This document shows, piece after piece, positions 54,205 to 61,638 of a stretch of 64,000 nucleotides of DNA. The stretch's first letter is position 1. Every line of letters starts with the position of its first letter. Where the stretch lies: the NCBI GenBank assembly GCA_031254105.1, contig JAIRVB010000016.1, positions 29,487 through 93,486 of the forward strand, given 5' to 3'. The notes beneath the pieces were generated by a model, which saw only the letters and a program-made list of their open reading frames with translations, was not told where the DNA came from and searched no databases. Origin of the DNA: Chitinispirillales bacterium. Its GTDB lineage: Bacteria; Fibrobacterota; Chitinivibrionia; Chitinivibrionales; Chitinispirillaceae. The position numbers were made by a program, and so were the translations under genes.

Positions 54205-54611
54205 GCTTTGCGGTTAAACTCTATTTAGAGATGATAAAAATAAAAATATACCAGGGGCGGGGAAAAATGGAAATTTTTGGTTGGGTTTTATTTATATTAA
54301 TGACTTTGTGTATTGCCGTAAACCCCTTACTATACCGAAACATCATAAAAATCAATATTCCACCGTAAATGATTTGGGCAGATTGGCGGCAATGGAGTCA
54401 TAATACATAAATTATCAACTTATTTACCTTCACGCGCGGCAAGAACTATTTTGATATTTAATTGCCTTTTGATTGTTATTATTATTGTTATTATTATTTA
54501 AGTTGTTTCTCTCAATCTCTGTATTTTCACCCATTTCAACTCTCATTATGAATCTCGCTGTAGATATGTTACTTTTATTAAAGTTTAACACTTGATATGG
54601 ATGATGATAAT
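54205..54611. other. Intergenic region with trinucleotide run
   Basis: About 400 AT-rich bases. An ATT-type microsatellite (about 54472-54498, TTGTTATTATTATTGTTATTATTATT-like) is the only structure seen. Promoters for the divergent genes are expected here. Confidence 0.45.
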
Positions 54612-55523
54612 ATGAGCGACCGCACAATAATCTCATTTGACTACGCAATGAAAACCGCCCTGCGCGACAAGGCCAATTTCGGTATTTTAGAAGGCTTTCT
54701 CAGTGAACTTCTGTCAAAGAATATCACAATACTTGATCTGTTGGAAAGCGAAAGCAATACCGATTGCAAAGACGGCAAAACCAACCGCGTAGACCTCAAA
54801 GCAAGGATAGACGGCAGCGAGCTTGCGATAATTGAGATACAATTCGCTACCCAGTTAGACTTTTTCGGCAGAGCGCTGTGGGCGGCAAGCAAGGCTATAG
54901 TGGAGCAGGTCTCGGCAGGCGGCGAATACCATATAAAGAAAGTTTACTCCATAAATATCGCGTATTTTGATCTTGGCGCAAAGTTAGAGTACATGTTCCG
55001 CGCTGATATGCTTAATTTTAATGGAATCCATTACGACGAAAAAATCCCATTTTCGCAATATGACTCGCCGCCGCTGTCAACAAAGAGTTATATCCATCCA
55101 GAATACTATCTTATACTGCCTAACAAATTTAACGAACAGATAAACAACGGCGTCGATGAGTGGGTTTATCTTTTCAAGAATTCTACCGTTAAAGATAACT
55201 TTAAGGCAAAAGGTATACAGGAAGCAGGGGTCAAGTTAGACACATTAAAAATGACTAAGGCGCAGAGGGAAGCTTACGAGAAATACCTTACAGACAGGCA
55301 AAGCGTTGACAGCGCCATCAAAACCGCAAGGGTAGAGGGAAGAGAAGAGGGCGAAGCGGTTGGCTTGGCAAAAGGTAAAGCTGAGGGCGAAGCGGCTGGC
55401 TTGGCAAAAGGTAAGGCTGAGGGCAGAAAAGAGGTTGCGAAAGCGATGAAAAATAAAGGGATAGACGCCAATACTATCGCGGAGCTGACTGGGTTTGCGG
55501 CGGATGAAATTTCGGAACTTTGA
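54612..55523 (+). CDS. Rpn/PDDEXK_2-family recombination-promoting nuclease
   Basis: 303 residues from the ATG at 54612 (SDRTIISFDYAMK is the usual family start). N-terminal PD-(D/E)xK core: ISFDYAMKTALRDKANFGILEGFLSELL, NRVDLKARIDGSELAIIEIQFA (Asp plus E-x-Q variant) and ALWAASKAIVEQVSAGGEY. The C-terminal region has a 12-residue repeat encoded by a 36-bp tandem repeat (GEAVGLAKGKAE / GEAAGLAKGKAE) and ends in a short helix pair. The family is widespread in clusters of transposase-associated genes; some members promote recombination in vivo. Not a classical transposase. Confidence 0.85.
   Translation: MSDRTIISFDYAMKTALRDKANFGILEGFLSELLSKNITILDLLESESNTDCKDGKTNRVDLKARIDGSELAIIEIQFATQLDFFGRALWAASKAIVEQVSAGGEYHIKKVYSINIAYFDLGAKLEYMFRADMLNFNGIHYDEKIPFSQYDSPPLSTKSYIHPEYYLILPNKFNEQINNGVDEWVYLFKNSTVKDNFKAKGIQEAGVKLDTLKMTKAQREAYEKYLTDRQSVDSAIKTARVEGREEGEAVGLAKGKAEGEAAGLAKGKAEGRKEVAKAMKNKGIDANTIAELTGFAADEISEL
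55347..55418. repeat. 36-bp tandem repeat inside the nuclease gene
   Basis: Two adjacent units (55347-55382, 55383-55418) differ at two positions, followed by the start of a third (GAGGGC). Each encodes 12 residues, so copy-number change keeps frame. Such repeats are common in the C-terminal part of Rpn-type proteins. Confidence 0.85.
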
Positions 55524-55898
55524 ATGAACGCTTACACAAATAAAAAAGTGATGTAGACTATTCGCCCTTTTGTATTAATCAAAAAAACAGGCGTAGACCT
55601 CATTAGAAAATCTCTCCTGAAACAACGGATTTTGAATCTTACCGCAGAATGAAACGGATATGTCGCGAAACAGGAAAAAGCTTTGACAGAGAAATAACGC
55701 GATTGTTTTATTTTTGCGTTAATAATGTTTTTCCCGCACATCGCGTTTTTTGAAATACAGAAACTGCTTTATAATGTCAATCCGCGCGTTTGCCATACCC
55801 GCTGACGGATAGGAACCAATCAGCCGGGAAGCGCTGTCTTTTCAGCCTCGTGTTTCAACGCGGGGCATTCCGGCGAGATATGCGGAGGAGCAGCGCGG
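55524..55898. other. Spacer upstream of the family A element
   Basis: 375 bases; no supported gene. A minus-strand frame of 69 codons (55532-55741) shows no features. Confidence 0.4.
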
Positions 55899-56038
55899 CA
55901 GACTGTGTCAAAAGTACAAAATCTTTGCCAAAAATGTCGATTTGTCAAAATTAATTGACAAATAGGCTGCGAAATTAGCTCAAAAACAGCAATTTTCTTT
56001 TTGTCAATGCTGTTCGTTTTGAGTTTTGACACAGTCTG
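55899..56038. repeat. MITE-like element, family A copy 3
   Basis: 140 bp with perfect 15-bp inverted ends CAGACTGTGTCAAAA / TTTTGACACAGTCTG. The flanks are a direct GCGG (55895-55898 and 56039-56042), a possible 4-bp target duplication. No ORF. Shares ends and interior words with 14577-14715. It sits just beyond the template repeat of the DGR. Confidence 0.75.
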
Positions 56039-56183
56039 GCGGAACTCCAAATGGAAAATTTGGGATAAAAAATGCCGCGGCTTTCAAAAGCGCATCCATC
56101 GCTCTTACTAACTAAGGCATTATGCTAAAATGTTCAACCGCAATTATTTGAAAAATCACGGTTTGGAAACCGGCCGGTTCGCA

Positions 56184-56201
56184 AATGCACTTCTGTGCAT
56201 T
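56184..56201. other. Hairpin beyond the template repeat
   Basis: AATGCAC-TTCT-GTGCATT, a 7-bp stem with 4-base loop, lies 11 bases past the 3' end (in minus-strand sense) of the TR. It might define or protect the 3' end of the TR transcript. Confidence 0.4.
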
Positions 56202-56212
56202 CATTTTGCAAG

Positions 56213-56347
56213 CTCAGGGGGACAAGGCAAGGCGGAAGCCCAAATTGTTGTTGCGATTACTCGGATTGTCGTTGTTGCGATTAGACACACGGCAATTCCT
56301 CGCATCGTTGTTCCAACTGCCCCCGCGATTTACGCGGTTACTGCCTG
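56213..56347 (-). repeat. DGR template repeat (TR)
   Basis: 135 bp, immediately downstream of the RT stop (2-base gap). On the minus strand, read in the frame of the target, it encodes SWNNDARNCRVSNRNNDNPS followed by NRNNNLGFRLALSP and a stop: Asn codons (AAC/AAT) stand where variation is expected. It aligns with the VR at 58041-58180 with 19 substitutions, each at a TR adenine, plus one 5-bp gap. The invariant ends are CTCAGGGGGACAAGGCAAGG (plus strand) and GCGGTTACTGCCTG. Confidence 0.95.
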
Positions 56348-56349
56348 TC

Positions 56350-57423
56350 CTAAGCCGGTTTCCGTTGTTTGAACTCTGTAAAAACTTTTCTCCTCAATTC
56401 AACTGTATTTGCAAATCGTGTAAACGCTACTAAAGGTTCAACATGCCTCGCATACTCTTTTTGCGACCAAAGTCCGTTACTTAGTTGTTTCCCGTAATTT
56501 TCTGCTTTCATAATAAATCTTTTTTTGCTGCTTTTATTCAATCTTACGTTATTAGAAAATAAAACATAACCTAAAAAAGGAATGCCTCTATCTATAGAAT
56601 TTAAGACAGGAGCTTTTAACTGCAAATCTAACTTTTCTCTGCAATATGCCTCAACTTTTTTGTAAATATCTAATAATACGCTTTTGTTTTTGTGAATAAA
56701 AACCATATCATCCATATAACGGACGTATTTTACCGAAGATGAAAGCTCCTCAATGTAATGGTCTAAGTGCGCTAAATAAAAATTGCCAAAATATTGACTG
56801 GTTAAATTACCTATCGGAACGCCGCGCAGCTCTGTTACCGAATAAGAATTTATTATCTCCCAAAAGAGTTTTAACAGGTACGGGTCTTTAAATTTCCTTG
56901 ATAGTTTCTCGAACAAAATTCTATGGTTTATGCTGTCAAAATACTTACGTACATCTAATTTTAAAAAATATAAATTGCAAGGCAGGTTATTGTGTTGTAA
57001 AGTAACTGAGTTGGGGATACTCATAGCTGGATATGCCTCTTGGACAATCCATTGTTTTACACGGTTTAACGCCGCGTACTGGCCTTTGCCTGTCCGCGTG
57101 GCATAACTGTCGTTAATTTGGAATTTTTCAAAAAACTGATGACATACATTCATAATAGCGTGATGCAAAACGCGCTCTCTGAAACTTGCCGCGCAAATAA
57201 GACGTTCCTTGGGATCATAAATTTTAAAATAGTAATAATTGCCTACATTTACATTGGCGGTTAATATTTCGTCGCGCAGTTCTGTTAAAAATGATTCAGT
57301 ATTTACGGATGGACAACCTTGCGGAATTGAACCGGAAGCCGCGGCCCTTTTGGTTTTCCAAAAAGCTAAACGTAAATTTTCCATCTCCGCAATTTTTTCT
57401 ATCAAAAAACCAATTCGTTTCAT
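56350..57423 (-). CDS. Diversity-generating retroelement reverse transcriptase
   Basis: 357 residues. RT motifs: SFRERVLHHAIMNVCHQFFE, LYFLKLDVRKYFDSINH (motif A), RGVPIGNLTSQYFGNFYLAHLDHYI with the DGR-specific IGxxxSQ in place of QGxxxSP of group II and retroviral RTs, and YVRYMDDMVFIH (catalytic YxDD near 237). DGR RTs copy the TR RNA with errors at adenines and the cDNA replaces the VR. The start overlaps the HRDC gene by 4 bases (ATGA). Homologous to the Bordetella phage Brt family. Confidence 0.93.
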   Translation of the reverse strand: MKRIGFLIEKIAEMENLRLAFWKTKRAAASGSIPQGCPSVNTESFLTELRDEILTANVNVGNYYYFKIYDPKERLICAASFRERVLHHAIMNVCHQFFEKFQINDSYATRTGKGQYAALNRVKQWIVQEAYPAMSIPNSVTLQHNNLPCNLYFLKLDVRKYFDSINHRILFEKLSRKFKDPYLLKLFWEIINSYSVTELRGVPIGNLTSQYFGNFYLAHLDHYIEELSSSVKYVRYMDDMVFIHKNKSVLLDIYKKVEAYCREKLDLQLKAPVLNSIDRGIPFLGYVLFSNNVRLNKSSKKRFIMKAENYGKQLSNGLWSQKEYARHVEPLVAFTRFANTVELRRKVFTEFKQRKPA

Positions 57424-57881
57424 AAGGCTACGTACTTTTCTACCATAGATTTTCCGTATTTTTCAATCTTTTTCTCGCCTATGCCCTTTACATTTTTCAT
57501 CTGAGAAACTATTTCGAGAATAGACGTTGTAACGGAAATAATTTTTACGATCTCCGCAAGCTCAGCGTCTGTAAATACAATGTAAGGCTGAACAGCATCG
57601 GCTATAGCCAAATCTTTGCGAATTACGCGCAGTTTTGAAAATATTGAAAACTCCGCTTCACTCAATACCTCTTTGTAGTCTATTTTTTTACCGTATTGCT
57701 CTTTAGACAACACAGCAACAGAGGTGATGTAACGAATACAAAACGACCAGTACGCGCCGTTCTCGTTTTGGAAAAATTTTTGTTCCGCTTCCAACACTTT
57801 ATGATTTGACAAAAATGCGTTCAGCTCCGCGTGCAGCGCGCCTGTGTCGGTAATCGGAATGGTGAAAATTTTTATTTGCAT
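57420..57881 (-). CDS. DGR-associated HRDC-domain accessory protein
   Basis: 153 residues from the ATG at 57881 (GGGG upstream); the frame extends to 57947 but those codons lie in the spacer. N-terminal part MQIKIFTIPITDTGALHAELNAFLSNHKVLEAEQKFF is characteristic of DGR/HRDC and related proteins. C-terminal HRDC-like helices (EAEFSIFSKLRVIRKDLAIADAVQPYIVFTDAELAEIV ... VKGIGEKKIEKYGKSMVEKY), a nucleic-acid-binding fold. HRDC proteins are a known alternative to Avd as DGR accessory factors. Coupled to the RT by a 4-base overlap. Confidence 0.85.
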   Translation of the reverse strand: MQIKIFTIPITDTGALHAELNAFLSNHKVLEAEQKFFQNENGAYWSFCIRYITSVAVLSKEQYGKKIDYKEVLSEAEFSIFSKLRVIRKDLAIADAVQPYIVFTDAELAEIVKIISVTTSILEIVSQMKNVKGIGEKKIEKYGKSMVEKYVAL

Positions 57882-58011
57882 AAACGATGCCCCAACATTT
57901 AAAAAACAATTTACAAAGGGATGAAGTTTCAACGGAGCTTTAATCAAAAATTAAAATCAAAACAAGCTCCGTTCGTCCCTCTCTGCGCTAAAACATAAAA
58001 CCAAAAGCTGC

Positions 58012-58038
58012 CGCTGGGGCTCCGCCCAAAAACCAGCG
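58012..58038. other. Hairpin directly after the variable repeat
   Basis: On the minus strand CGCTGG ... GGC-GGA-GCC ... CCAGCG forms a bulged hairpin starting 3 bases after the VR. In the Bordetella phage system a hairpin/cruciform just downstream of the VR boosts retrohoming; this is in the same place. Confidence 0.5.
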
Positions 58039-58040
58039 AA

Positions 58041-58180
58041 CTCAGGGGGACAAGGCAAGGCGGAAGCCCAAATCGTCGTAGCGAAAACTCGGATTGACGA
58101 GGCCGCGAAGCGATAAGACACACGGCAAGACCTCGCACCGCTGAACCAACTGCCCCCGCGATAAACGCGGTTACTGCCTG
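58041..58180 (-). repeat. DGR variable repeat (VR) with 5-bp insertion
   Basis: 140 bp at the 3' end of the target gene, aligned with the TR at 56213-56347. All 19 substitutions fall on TR adenines (for example AAT to TCT, AAC to GGC, AAC to TTC). It also has 5 extra bases (TTCGC on the coding strand, within 58105-58115) after the TATCGC codons. Without them the frame would read SYRGLVNPSFRYDDLGFRLALSP and stop at 58042. Confidence 0.93.
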
Positions 58181-59186
58181 ATGATGGGCCTGTAGGATTC
58201 GTCATGGAAGTGTCTGTATAAAAGTCATACCAATCACTAACCCACTCCCAAACATTACCGCTCATATCATAGATGCCCAACTCATTGGGACGCTTTGTAC
58301 CAATAGCACGGGTTTTACTACCGCTGTTATTACCATACCAAGCAACCTCATCAATATTATTACTACCAGAATACTTAAAGTTTTTACTGTTTGAACCGCC
58401 CCGTGCCGCATATTCCCACTCCGCTTCTGTCGGCAAACGATACTTTCTACCTGTAATCGTATTTAACTTTTTGATAAACTCTTGAATATCGTTCCAGCTA
58501 ACTTGCTCAACAGGTAACTTATTCCCTTTAAAATGAGATGGATTATTACCCATTACTTTTACCCACAGCTCCTGCGTTACTTCATATTTGCCAATATAAA
58601 AATTTCTTAGTGTTATGCGGCGTGTTGGTCCTTCATCTTCATAGCACTCGTTTCCCTGCTCCTCCGTACAACCCATTGTAAAAGCTCCGCCTCTGACAAG
58701 GATCATTTCGGGATCTTTGAATTTATGCGCCTGCATATCTTTCATATAATCATCAACAACGTCACTGAACGCTTTTTCGATATCTGGATCAACTTGATAG
58801 TCTTTCATATAATCATCTATGACATTTTTAAGCGCGTTTCTCGCGTCTTTACTGTTCGGATCAATTAACATAGATTTCATATAATCATCCATGGCGGTTT
58901 TAAGCGCTCTTCTCGCTTCCTTACTGTTCGGATCGGCCAGTATAGATTTCATATAATCATCCAAGGCGGTTTTAAGCGACTTTTTCGCGTTTTTGTGACG
59001 CAGAGCAACGCTGTCCAACTCAGGTTCCGGTTCATCGGGCTGCGGTTCCAAAACAGGAGACTGCAAGGACGCCGAATCGCTGACAGCGGCAGGAACATTT
59101 TCTCTATCTTTAGGAGTATCTTTCTTTCCGCAAAAAATAAACATTAAAAAAAACGCCGTGAGAACAATCTTAATACCACACTTCAT
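58042..59186 (-). CDS. DGR target: FGE/C-type-lectin-fold lipoprotein with variable C-terminus (current allele frameshifted)
   Basis: ATG at 59186 with GAGGAAG 6 bases upstream. Signal peptide ending at a cysteine (LMFIFCGKK, Cys 19), probably lipidated. Residues 67-138 are three 24-residue repeats (cores ALDDYMKS, AMDDYMKS, VIDDYMKD). The FGE (SUMF1) fold starts at about 160: MILVRGGAFTMGCTEEQ, YEVTQELWVKVMGNNPSHF, YRLPTEAEWEYAARGG, GIYDMSGNVWEWVSDWY, YRGGSW. Only one cysteine lies in the C-terminal motif (SCRVSYR), so it is a binding fold rather than an oxidase. The VR covers the last about 45 residues. Because of a 5-bp insertion the frame as it stands reads past 58042 to 57957 with an unrelated 50-residue tail; the coordinates given end at the stop used by the TR frame. 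Confidence 0.85.
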
Positions 59187-59295: not shown

Positions 59296-61638
59296 TTATT
59301 GAGAAGGAGAGATTGCTATACGGAAGCCTACTCCGTTACGGCGAAGCCCCGGATTATTATTGCCGCGATAGGAAACCCGGCAAGAATTTTTGTCGAAACT
59401 CCAATTGCCGCCGCGAAAAACGCGGCGTTTAGTATCTCCTGGAGCCCCCTGGGGATTGGTCTCGCTGTATTCCTCATACGTGTCGTACCAATCATTGACC
59501 CATTCAAAAACATTGCCGCTCATATCATATATTCCCAACTCATTCGGCGCTTTTCTGCCTGCCGGCTGAGTTCTATTTTTGCTGTTATCTCTGTGCCATG
59601 CCACAGCGTCCGCATCATCGCCTCCGGCATACTTGTATCCCCTGCTTTTCGCCCCGCCCCGCGCGGCGTATTCCCATTCCGCTTCCGTAAGAAGCCGGTA
59701 ATTTTTGCCGGTTTTTTTATTTAACGAATCAATAAACATAACGGCATGATACCAACTTACATAAACTACCGGATGATTGCCGTCACTCTCACCCCACGGA
59801 ACATCCCGCTGATCACGGGTCACCTCAAACATCAATTTACGCGGAGTAATTCCGGTTACCTTTTCCCATTGCTTTTGTGTTACAGGAAATTTACTTATAT
59901 AAAAGTCACTGAGGGTTACATCACGCACCAGCCTTTCGTCAATATTACAATCATCACCCTGCTCCTCCGTACAGCCCATTTTGAATTTACCGCCCTTTAC
60001 AAACACCATTTCTATCTCTATTTCATCTTTGCTGATATCGTATTTTGTTCCCTCAATTGTAAACGTGCTACGGTTAAGCATTTTATCATTGTACCAAATT
60101 TCGTGAGAATATTCGCCGTGAGTACGGTCGCTCCCTTTGGTAAAATCCCATCCTGATAATACAACAGTATCAATACTCCTGTTAGGTTCTATGGAGATAT
60201 TATCCCTGTACGTATACCCTTTGGGAGAGGATGGAAATGACACAAGTACACTGTCTTGATCAAGTATTTTAACATAAAAGTCTATCTTGTCGGAATGGAG
60301 CCAGTTTTTATGTCCATAGACGACGCGGGGTTTAAGATATTTGAGCTGAGCCGCGTAAAATTTCGAGCCATATTGATCAACAGTATTGCCATTATCATCG
60401 AAATCAGCGAATTTAACTTCACTAATTGTAACCGGAACGCTGTGTATTTGTGTAAAGATATCTTTAACCGCTTCTCTGACAGTTGCGTGATCTTCTAAAT
60501 TGCTTATATTAGATTCGCCTGCGTTCTTAAATATTCTGCGGGTTTCCACATCTAACAGTTTGGCGGAAAGAACATATGAACGCGAATCTTTTTTTAAATA
60601 ATCAACCATACAGACATATTCAAAACCCTCTTTTGCGGCAGATTTAAAAATATAGCTGCTATCCTCAGAATTGATTGAGCGATTGTATTTTGATTCCTGC
60701 GGCTTTTGCCATCCTCTTACGAAGTATTTTTTGTTGATTGAAAAAGTATCCACGAATATTTGCGTCAAATTCGGATAACCGCTGCCAACTACATCAAGAG
60801 GAGCCGTGTAAACCATAACCATAGGGGGATCTGAAGCGTAATAGCTTTTTACTTCATTTCGTAAAGTATTGACTCTTTTCGACAATTCGCTGATTTTCTG
60901 ATTCAAATCAGGGTATTTGTTTTTACCTGAAATATTATTCAGTCTCTCTATAAGGTCAAACAGGCTTATAAGAGAATTTGTTTTACCATCGGATTTGTAT
61001 TTTTCGCCGAGATTGGAAACCTGTGCATTGATATTACTAATTTCCAATTTTAAATTACGTTGTTCTCTTTCTATAGAGTCTTGTTTAGCTATAGCATCAT
61101 TTATAGAATCTTGTTCTGCCTTTATACTTGCTTCTCTTATAGAATTTTGGTTATCTCGTATGCATTTTAATATATGCGGCGTCTGATTGCAATTAGGTAA
61201 TGCAGACTTTTGGGATTCTTTGCCTCTTTTTATTCTCTTTCTCGCTTCATTCCATGCTTTGTTAATATCCTCAAACTTGTCATTAAATTTTTTAATTTCC
61301 GCAAATATTTCAACGGTATAATGATCAGAATTGCAGCAGTCGGCCACAATTATCGTCCCGTGCTGAAGCGAGAATGTTGCGATATTCTCACTTAGAAATT
61401 CCTTACCACCAAGATGGTTTATTATTTGTCCTTCTAACTCTTGCCGCGCCTTTTCTGTTGCGGATTCCTTTGTTGGAGCCCATCCCCTAGCTGTTACAAA
61501 TTTAGATTCCGTTGTCCTTGGCAAATCGTCTCTGCTATCCCACCATGGACGTTTATCTTCTGTATCAATACAAAGGCAATCAGCCATTAAAATTTTATTG
61601 GCAAATAGCAAAAAAATTAACAGTTTCAAAATTTTCAT
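59296..61638 (-). CDS. Multi-domain exported protein with LPP20-like N-terminus and C-terminal FGE fold
   Basis: 780 residues, GGAGGGAG before the ATG. Signal peptide (ILKLLIFLLFANKILMADC). N-terminal domain about 25-130 (FVTARGWAPTKESATEKARQELEGQIINHLGG) is LPP20/LPP-like and shared with the 271-residue neighbour. Coiled coil about 140-260. A middle domain (about 275-400: MVYTAPLDVVGSGYPNLTQIFVDTF ... YVLSAKLLDVETRRIFKNAG) is TolB/CsgG-like in appearance. FGE fold from about 545 (MVFVKGGKFKMGCTEEQG ... YRLLTEAEWEYAARGG ... GIYDMSGNVFEWVNDWYD ... FRGGNW). The C-terminus SCRVSYRGNNNPGLRRNGVGFR resembles a VR, but its invariant codons do not match the TR. Immediately upstream of the DGR target, same strand. 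Confidence 0.75.
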   Translation of the reverse strand: MKILKLLIFLLFANKILMADCLCIDTEDKRPWWDSRDDLPRTTESKFVTARGWAPTKESATEKARQELEGQIINHLGGKEFLSENIATFSLQHGTIIVADCCNSDHYTVEIFAEIKKFNDKFEDINKAWNEARKRIKRGKESQKSALPNCNQTPHILKCIRDNQNSIREASIKAEQDSINDAIAKQDSIEREQRNLKLEISNINAQVSNLGEKYKSDGKTNSLISLFDLIERLNNISGKNKYPDLNQKISELSKRVNTLRNEVKSYYASDPPMVMVYTAPLDVVGSGYPNLTQIFVDTFSINKKYFVRGWQKPQESKYNRSINSEDSSYIFKSAAKEGFEYVCMVDYLKKDSRSYVLSAKLLDVETRRIFKNAGESNISNLEDHATVREAVKDIFTQIHSVPVTISEVKFADFDDNGNTVDQYGSKFYAAQLKYLKPRVVYGHKNWLHSDKIDFYVKILDQDSVLVSFPSSPKGYTYRDNISIEPNRSIDTVVLSGWDFTKGSDRTHGEYSHEIWYNDKMLNRSTFTIEGTKYDISKDEIEIEMVFVKGGKFKMGCTEEQGDDCNIDERLVRDVTLSDFYISKFPVTQKQWEKVTGITPRKLMFEVTRDQRDVPWGESDGNHPVVYVSWYHAVMFIDSLNKKTGKNYRLLTEAEWEYAARGGAKSRGYKYAGGDDADAVAWHRDNSKNRTQPAGRKAPNELGIYDMSGNVFEWVNDWYDTYEEYSETNPQGAPGDTKRRVFRGGNWSFDKNSCRVSYRGNNNPGLRRNGVGFRIAISPSQ

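What the first reader, a model, noticed from the sequence alone, without database searches (positions are those of the whole stretch)
56184..59186. Complete diversity-generating retroelement with an FGE-fold lipoprotein target
On one strand and within 3 kb lie a target gene, an HRDC accessory gene, a DGR-type RT (IGNLTSQ, YMDD) and a TR starting 2 bases after the RT stop. By hand alignment, VR 58041-58180 and TR 56213-56347 differ at 19 positions, and all 19 are adenines in TR on the coding strand; no other base differs. The TR is Asn-codon rich exactly at the surface positions of the lectin-like fold. This is direct sequence evidence for adenine-specific mutagenic retrohoming. The target carries a lipoprotein-like signal and 24-residue spacer repeats, so it probably displays a variable receptor on the cell envelope.
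Basis: partly seen in the sequence, partly recalled or inferred. Interest (0 to 1): 0.85.

Follow-up and report, generated by a model that had tools for sequence, protein, structure and literature searches.

The report
Gene-rewriting retroelement with frameshifted target
This bacterial element likely rewrites the end of one predicted surface-protein gene by error-prone copying of a nearby template: template and target differ at 19 bases, all of them A in the template, but the present target copy is also five bases too long and so out of frame; in most of the related elements compared, the DNA just after each target is the reverse complement of the DNA just after the template, so the template's RNA would be able to find its target by base pairing.

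Summary
TR and VR differ at 19 positions, all TR adenines (35 of 135 TR bases are A; p about 6e-14). The RT groups with diversity-generating retroelement (DGR) RTs, inside an HRDC-bearing clade.

A 5-nt insertion, readable as a tandem copy of ATCGC with its A changed to T, shifts the frame: the present protein loses the LGFRLALSP end and gains an unrelated tail. RT slippage is the likeliest cause; assembly error is not excluded.

Surveying relatives gave a pattern I did not find in print. In HRDC-clade DGRs the ~31 nt after TR are complementary to the ~34 nt after VR (61 of 64 distinct pairs with a C>T boundary; swaps between unlike loci 15 of 3052). Phage-type DGRs lack it (1 of 69 pairs; that one carries HRDC). 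It suggests RNA-guided target choice. The window's own VR1 lacks this pairing, and a second, older VR-like place elsewhere in the genome is followed by a TR-type flank. The window's element may be stalled.

The parts
57957..59186 (-). Target gene as read: 409 aa, signal-like N terminus, 24-residue repeats, FGE-sulfatase domain; frameshifted inside VR, so the last 27 residues of VR and the tail are out of frame with TR
58803..59018 (-). Three 72-nt tandem repeats (24-residue spacer repeats); a fourth partial copy starts at 58738
   Evidence: families D1, D2
58041..58180 (-). VR1, 140 nt: 19 substitutions against TR, all at TR-A, plus a 5-nt insertion
58105..58113 (-). The inserted bases: 58109-58113 as the aligner places them; read as a tandem copy, ATCGC is followed by TTCGC at 58105-58109
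   Evidence: reading of the letters
57996..58040 (-). 3' flank of VR1: starts TTC after the AG of the repeat (the AGTT end usual for VRs of this clade), but not complementary to the TR flank; possible weak hairpin CGCTGG/CCAGCG
57420..57881 (-). HRDC-domain accessory gene, 153 aa, overlaps the RT gene by 4 nt
56350..57423 (-). DGR reverse transcriptase, 357 aa
56213..56347 (-). TR (template repeat), 135 nt, 35 A, 13 Asn codons in the target frame, in-frame stop at its end
56113..56212 (-). 3' flank of TR (spacer of the likely DGR RNA): hairpin AATGCAC-AGAA-GTGCATT, then GAACCGGCCGGTTTCCAAACCG (56159-56180) and CGGTTGAACA; same plan in L044, L046 and after VR2
   Evidence: hairpin z -2.73 as DNA

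Best explanation
This is a diversity-generating retroelement of the HRDC-accessory clade: its template and variable repeats differ by 19 substitutions, every one at a template adenine, plus a 5-base insertion that shifts the target's reading frame, and its reverse transcriptase likely wrote this copy over the 3' end of the target gene while slipping once on the template. Shown: the parts, the adenine-only substitutions, the insertion and its frameshift, the RT's place in the tree. Inferred: TR RNA is copied into cDNA with errors opposite A, and the cDNA replaces the VR at the 3' end of an FGE/C-type-lectin-type gene whose product is probably exported. Inferred: the insertion arose in cDNA synthesis, because the extra 5 bases fit a second copy of TR ATCGC whose A became T while no non-A base changed. 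As assembled, the target protein lacks its last conserved strand; because TR is intact, a later round of copying would give an in-frame VR again if the element is still active. Whether it is active is open: VR1 lacks the 3' flank, complementary to the TR flank, that nearly all scored HRDC-clade relatives have.
For: 19 of 19 substitutions at TR-A, 0 of 100 non-A bases changed, p 6e-14. RT inside the DGR side (100/100) and the HRDC clade (100/99), sister to a Fibrobacterota DGR RT (99/97); best PDB match of the RT profile is 8ub7, 206 bits, next best a group II RT at 96 bits (that 8ub7 is the BPP-1 enzyme is recalled). HRDC gene; HRDC was found in 60 of 60 scored genome contigs relatives. Target matches the T. 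denticola DGR variable protein. Relatives keep the VR-HRDC-RT-TR plan. Insertion robust to two alignment schemes; it fits a tandem TR copy with an A position mutated. Slippage of a DGR RT is discussed in PMC12875486 (passages); a +18 VR with A-mutated extra units is seen in L029. TR/VR boundary AGCT/AGTT as in 120 of 160 scored pairs.
Against: One assembly, no reads: the insertion could be an assembly error. The published slippage is in multiples of three within AAC repeats; this one is 5 nt and outside such a run, and I saw no other multi-base out-of-frame indel among 162 pairs. VR1's flank has neither the pairing of its relatives nor a significant hairpin. The other VR-like place, VR2, has 9 non-A changes of 96. 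No same-species second genome: the one genome of the same genus searched has no match to the RT.
Confidence: 0.8

Rival explanations
1. The 5-nt insertion is an assembly or population artefact: VR variants from sibling cells were joined in assembly, and the real VR is in frame.
For: The genome is a 56-contig assembly of unnamed origin; VRs are hypervariable; in-frame or single-base indels are the only others in 162 pairs.
Against: The extra bases fit exactly a tandem TR copy with only an A position changed, and all flanking non-A bases match TR. Misjoining two variants would not by itself give that.
Confidence: 0.2
2. Ordinary replication slippage in VR DNA duplicated 5 bases after retrohoming, and a later point mutation changed the A.
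For: Tandem duplications of a few bases are common in general (general knowledge).
Against: 0 of 100 non-A bases in VR1 have changed, so a background point mutation at just a TR-A position is unlikely.
Confidence: 0.07
3. The element is no longer able to rewrite VR1: the target flank has diverged from the guide-like TR flank, and the frameshift is a fossil of one of the last rounds.
For: No flank complementarity in VR1 (score 5, z -1.4; ddG -4.2 against shuffle mean -5.3) where 61 of 64 distinct C>T pairs of relatives have it; frameshifted VR; VR2 is drifting.
Against: VR1 has no non-A change at all, so its last rewriting is recent; the RT ORF and TR are intact; other HRDC relatives with split or weak pairing exist (L047, L077, L096), and the nearest relatives (L044, L046) have no VR on their contigs for comparison.
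Confidence: 0.4
4. The RT is a group II intron, retron or defence RT, and the repeat resemblance is incidental.
For: NCBIfam has no DGR RT model and gives partial hits to group II, Drt3a and retron models, all far below their cut-offs.
Against: Tree, 8ub7 match, adenine-only differences, same plan in relatives.
Confidence: 0.01

Closest known systems
Treponema denticola DGR (variable protein 1 / TvpA; HRDC accessory)
   Same: FGE/C-type-lectin-type variable protein (best PDB sequence match of the target, 2y3c); HRDC accessory gene overlapping the RT gene (PMC4891356, passages)
   Different: Here HRDC overlaps RT by 4 nt rather than 47 nt and TR follows RT (in T. denticola the accessory gene lies between TR and RT); VR here is frameshifted. 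Its TR and VR flanks were not compared.
Bordetella phage BPP-1 DGR
   Same: Adenine-specific TR to VR changes; TR/VR end difference (IMH*/IMH); RTs on the same side of the tree
   Different: BPP-1 uses Avd and a VR hairpin (PMC3240598, PMC12875486, passages); the window has HRDC and no significant VR hairpin
HRDC-clade DGRs of Bacteroidota, Chlorobi and Fibrobacterota (loci L044-L123, L028, L041)
   Same: RT clade, HRDC gene, VR-HRDC-RT-TR order, C>T boundary
   Different: In 55 of 60 scored loci the VR flank is complementary to the TR flank; the window's VR1 flank is not
Group II intron RT
   Same: Distant RT homology (TIGR04416 partial match, 80 bits against a cut-off of 300)
   Different: Separate side of the tree, 100/100; no intron sought or seen

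Membership tests
Diversity-generating retroelement | RT belongs to the DGR clade | tested here: met
   48-row tree with BPP-1 brt and 9 group II RTs (some long branches flagged); RT profile against PDB
Diversity-generating retroelement | TR/VR pair whose substitutions lie at TR adenines | tested here: met
   19 of 19
Diversity-generating retroelement | Accessory gene (avd or HRDC) | tested here: met
   HRDC, PF00570, 1.8e-11
Diversity-generating retroelement | VR in the 3' end of a gene of the C-type-lectin/FGE type | tested here: met
   PF03781, 2y3c; by sequence only, no structure was predicted
Diversity-generating retroelement | VR keeps the target reading frame | tested here: not met
   +5 nt against TR, out of frame; usual but not defining, and repairable if active
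Diversity-generating retroelement | TR and VR 3' ends differ (IMH* against IMH) | tested here: met
   AGCT against AGTT
Diversity-generating retroelement | DNA hairpin 3' of VR (proposed as conserved in PMC3240598) | tested here: inconclusive
   CGCTGG/CCAGCG possible; z -1.05, 31 of 200 shuffles as good (an earlier fold, cut off the stem's start)
Diversity-generating retroelement | Mutagenic retrohoming in living cells | not testable with these tools
   no reads, no experiment
HRDC-clade DGR with trans-complementary flanks (pattern described here) | VR flank complementary to TR flank | tested here: not met
   score 5, z -1.4; ddG -4.2 against shuffle mean -5.3
Group II intron RT | Groups with group II RTs / passes TIGR04416 | tested here: not met
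   80 bits against a cut-off of 300; tree

The most novel reading that the evidence does not exclude
HRDC-clade DGRs choose their targets by a built-in RNA guide. The ~31 nt right after TR in the DGR RNA pair with ~34 nt on the coding strand right after each VR, so that this RNA stretch and the mutated cDNA it carries anneal side by side to the same strand; TR is spared because its own flank is the guide, not the guide's complement. In place of the fixed hairpin of phage DGRs, each locus has its own guide/target pair. The window's element has lost this match, and its target is stuck with a slippage-made frameshift.
Probability: 0.55. Interest if true: 0.85.

Novelty: new variant of a known kind. 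Interest (0 to 1): 0.66.

Why it matters
How a DGR finds its targets and spares its template is still partly open outside the BPP-1 model. A locus-specific complementarity between TR flank and VR flank in a whole RT clade is directly testable by compensatory mutation and, if functional, would mean that HRDC DGRs are aimed by about 30 nt of RNA. The window's locus adds a natural case in which RT slippage likely knocked the target out of frame, and a case without the flank match, which bears on whether the match is required. The element by itself is a new member of a known kind; the flank pairing in its relatives is what makes it a new variant.

Tried and rejected
A second active target in this genome: one further TR-like place exists (VR2, G000:C15:258370-258496), but it has 9 non-A differences beside 15 at TR-A, a TR-type AGCT end and a TR-type flank (96 of 127 aligned bases identical to the TR flank of L046), so I do not count it as a current recipient. 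The 780-aa FGE gene at 59296-61638 aligns poorly with TR and I do not take it as a target.

Searches for the reverse complement of the VR2 flank and of the TR flank in the genome found the known places and a few weak chance-level matches (E 0.7 or more). In G019 the TR of L046 finds only 72% identical or weaker copies (the best, L233, was looked at); not used.

Prediction tests of the flank pattern, both ways: of 17 genome-contig loci without a TR/VR pair, a TR with a usable 3' boundary was located in 12 (4 had no TR core near the RT, 1 no usable boundary). In 3 of these 12 a complement of the TR flank scored 18 or more; the other 9 scored 9 to 13. Of the 3, L049 follows a real VR (126 aligned, 20 of 27 mismatches at TR-A), L060 follows 12 matching bases at the contig edge, L093 follows an IMH-like end with no VR. 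In the genome of L059 the only match of a 17-nt guide complement was the TR itself, so no new target was found.

Rows read in the wrong direction or register (second rows of L076, L103, L115; L108; L048) stayed in the counts as misses. Three of 81 rows were repeats of the same place (L082, L102, L111); one search gives the counts without them. All-against-all swaps without regard to flank likeness reach the threshold in 667 of 6426, because many loci share similar flanks; the 15 of 3052 leaves out 1332 like-flank swaps.

BPP-1 itself shows a complementarity score of 16 (3 of 1000 shuffles as high), but stem-swap data (PMC3240598) speak against sequence-specific pairing there; I draw nothing from it. 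A first hairpin test of the VR1 flank had cut off four bases; repeated. The association of HRDC with the flank pattern is one clade, not many independent gains.
Full report
WHAT IS IN THE WINDOW. On the minus strand, in order of transcription, lie a target ORF (59186-57957, 409 aa), an HRDC-domain ORF (57881-57420), an RT ORF (57423-56350, overlapping the HRDC gene by 4 nt) and the TR (56347-56213), two bases after the RT stop. Pfam gives FGE-sulfatase (3.5e-47), HRDC (1.8e-11) and RVT_1 (2.2e-17). The genome (G000, 3.68 Mb in 56 contigs, judged 100% complete and 1.5% contaminated) has no other RVT_1 match. In the tree the RT is sister to that of L044 (record title Fibrobacteria bacterium GUT77). 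G019, of the window's family, holds the contig of L046 by its length (13,653 bases; record title Chitinispirillales), so the host is probably a Chitinispirillales-type member of the Fibrobacterota (inference).

TR AND VR. An alignment that is lenient at TR-A and one that treats all bases alike agree: 19 substitutions, all at TR-A (11 to T, 6 to G, 2 to C), none at the 100 non-A bases; 35 of 135 TR bases are A, hypergeometric p 6e-14. VR1 also has 5 more bases than TR. TR reads ..TCT AATCGC AACAACG.., VR1 reads ..TCT TATCGC TTCGC GGCCTCG... The extra bases fit a second copy of ATCGC with its A changed to T. In the target frame the TR would give GSNRVNRGGSWNNDARNCRVSNRNNDNPSNRNNNLGFRLALSP-stop; VR1 gives GSNRVYRGGSWFSGARSCRVSYR and then the unrelated FAASSIRVFATTIWASALPCPPEFAGFWAEPQRQLLVLCFSAERDERSLF-stop. 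The Pfam match of the present protein stops at profile position 238 of 255, while that of the neighbouring 780-aa FGE protein reaches 254.

HOW UNUSUAL THE INSERTION IS. I collected DGR loci with an RT alignment (A1, 33 of the 120 listed homologues): the best 80 of 334 in genome contigs, the best 80 of 570 in viral contigs, plus loci of the phylum (some overlap each other). Of 179 loci examined, 144 gave a candidate TR/VR pair and 35 none; 171 pairs, of which 162 were kept after dropping repeats and weak ones. Six of 162 have an internal indel by my filter: +18, -3, -3, -3, -1, -1; single-base gaps near the edge of a repeat (for example L183, L196) fail the filter. VR1 itself was not run through that filter; its gap has matching sequence on both sides. 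The +18 (L029) lies in an AAC/GAC run and its extra units are changed at A positions too. Slippage in multiples of three inside AAC repeats is discussed in PMC12875486 (passages). A 5-nt step outside such a run is not among the 162.

MEMBERSHIP. A 48-row tree (own RT, BPP-1 brt and 71 RTs found, thinned to 48) places the RT in a clade of HRDC-bearing elements (100/99), sister to L044 (99/97), on a side with BPP-1 brt and phage DGR RTs that is separate from 9 group II RTs (100/100); some long branches are flagged. The RT profile's best PDB match is 8ub7, 'Reverse transcriptase', 6.9e-60 (that it is the BPP-1 enzyme is recalled). The target's best PDB match is T. denticola variable protein 1, 2y3c, 2.2e-38.

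THE FLANKS OF TR AND VR IN RELATIVES. At the 3' end of the TR/VR match the first non-A difference is C in TR and T in VR in 120 of 160 pairs (2 of 162 had no scorable end). The window fits: AGCT at the end of TR, AGTT at the end of VR1. In the genome contigs set the sequence after this point in VR is the reverse complement of the sequence after it in TR. A local complementarity score of at least 14 with shuffle p below 0.01 is reached in 72 of 81 rows, 69 of 78 distinct places. For C>T pairs a score of at least 14 is reached in 64 of 67 rows, 61 of 64 distinct places, against 15 of 3052 swaps between loci with unlike flanks (1332 like-flank swaps left out), 6 of 4050 shuffles and 0 of 67 for same-strand similarity; all swaps regardless of likeness give 667 of 6426. 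In 62 of the 64 rows the paired stretch starts at the first base of the TR flank; its median end is base 31 of the TR flank and base 34 of the VR flank. The flanks fall into 21 clusters, so it is not one inherited sequence. Of 213 non-Watson-Crick positions 118 are G.T/T.G wobbles (55% against 44% expected from the letters, 0 of 2000 shuffles as high; T.T, 66, is the next commonest non-pair). In the 9 genome-contig loci with two or more distinct C>T VRs, each VR reached at least 15. Ten recipient VRs lie downstream of TR, and six are scored more than 3 kb upstream (of these the L102 place may belong to that locus's second TR), so folding of one operon transcript is not enough to explain it. 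In 57 loci 139 matches to the flank complement were found: 60 on the minus strand, which are the TR flanks themselves (57, and two of score 29 belonging to second TRs) and one of score 15; and 79 on the plus strand, of which 70 directly follow the 8-nt IMH.

WHO HAS IT. Of the 80 genome-contig loci 63 gave a kept pair and 60 could be scored (L058, L078, L084 not). By phmmer with the window's HRDC protein, 60 of these 60 carry HRDC and 55 of 60 show the pattern at the threshold. The other five (L047, L048, L077, L096, L108) show split or partial pairing by co-folding, of which L077 and L096 are not clearly better than shuffles (12 and 9 of 100 as good), and L048 and L108 were scored in a shifted register. 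In the viral contigs set 2 of 69 loci carry HRDC and 1 of 71 rows (69 distinct) shows the pattern: L124, one of the two with HRDC; the other, L125, does not show it. Among phylum relatives L028 and L041 have HRDC and the pattern; L029, L030, L032, L033 and L038 have neither. HRDC loci form one clade in the tree, so this is one association, not many. Phage-type VR flanks instead tend to be self-complementary: 31 of 71 rows reach 14, against 7 of 67 here, as known from PMC3240598 (passages).

THE WINDOW AS EXCEPTION. VR1's flank does not pair with the TR flank (score 5, z -1.4; ddG -4.2 against shuffle mean -5.3, 194 of 300 shuffles as good), and its own hairpin is not significant. The TR flank is a hairpin (z -2.73) followed by GAACCGGCCGGTTTCC and AACCG..CGGTTGAACA, a plan shared with L044 and L046. 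A second TR-like place, VR2 (C15, 3' end of a 324-aa FGE protein with a better lipobox), differs from TR at 15 of 31 A and 9 of 96 non-A (Fisher p 9e-6). It is followed by a flank identical to the TR flank of L046 at 96 of 127 aligned bases, including a terminator-like end, and shares a 22-mer found at only these two places of the genome with up to 2 mismatches. VR2 therefore looks like an old product of mutagenic copying that carries a TR-type 3' domain; how it came about is open.

MECHANISM, SHOWN AND INFERRED. Shown: adenine-only differences, insertion, frameshift, shared order, flank complementarity in relatives. From PMC12875486 for BPP-1 (passages): the spacer after TR recruits the RT complex, an adenine of the spacer primes cDNA at IMH*, and the cDNA is thought to anneal to single-stranded target. 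Inferred here for HRDC DGRs: the TR flank in the RNA pairs with the coding strand just 3' of VR; as 60 of 64 C>T flanks hold GAAC or TTAAAC at about the end of the paired stretch, an adenine there could be the primer, so that RNA flank and cDNA would lie end to end on one strand. That the same complementarity pairs RNA with target mRNA is not excluded.

LITERATURE. I searched open papers for DGRs with frameshift, HRDC (twice), indel, IMH, inverted repeat/hairpin, complementary/spacer, base pairing and complementarity and saw passages of PMC3521204, PMC4891356, PMC8144416, PMC3240598, PMC4372165, PMC12875486, PMC6642488 and PMC10053308; the other papers I saw as search listings only. None of these passages describes complementarity between TR and VR flanks. 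Most subscription papers and all preprints are outside this library, so this is no proof of novelty.

Noticed in passing
L044-L123, L028, L041, L124 (flanks after TR and VR): In HRDC-clade DGRs the ~31 nt after TR are complementary to the ~34 nt after VR, with a different sequence pair in different loci; absent in phage-type DGRs.
   Followed up: yes
G000:C15:258370-258496 (L003, L008): A second VR-like place at the 3' end of a 324-aa FGE lipoprotein-like gene, followed by a TR-type DGR RNA flank with a terminator-like end.
   Followed up: partly
L029 918-1058 (G006, same family): A VR with an 18-nt in-frame expansion that reads as extra GACAAC units, each changed at A positions.
   Followed up: no
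window 56950-57050 (RT residues about 130-150): The RT has a stretch of about 21 residues that 31 of the 32 other aligned RTs lack; P0002 keeps three of its columns.
   Followed up: no
window 54597-55523 and L003 430-1287: A PD-(D/E)XK transposase-family gene lies near the DGR (PF12784), and a gene that looks of the same kind lies near VR2 (by eye, not scanned).
   Followed up: no
window 59296-61638: A 780-aa protein whose C-terminal FGE domain is paralogous to the target lies just upstream of it; its 3' end resembles VR but differs at many non-A bases.
   Followed up: partly
window 55896-56041: Imperfect 25-nt inverted repeat (84%) with 96 nt between the arms, downstream of TR; may be a small mobile element.
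   Followed up: no
P0034, P0050, P0078: In some relatives the RT reading frame runs on through TR, so the database marks one protein as RT plus FGE domain.
   Followed up: no
L093 2526: A TR-flank complement follows an IMH-like end with no recognisable VR before it: perhaps an orphan target end.
   Followed up: no
window about 57960-57985 and VR flanks of L086, L090 and others: GAGGGACGA(A/G)CG recurs some tens of bases after VR in the window and in several relatives (seen by eye, not counted).
   Followed up: no
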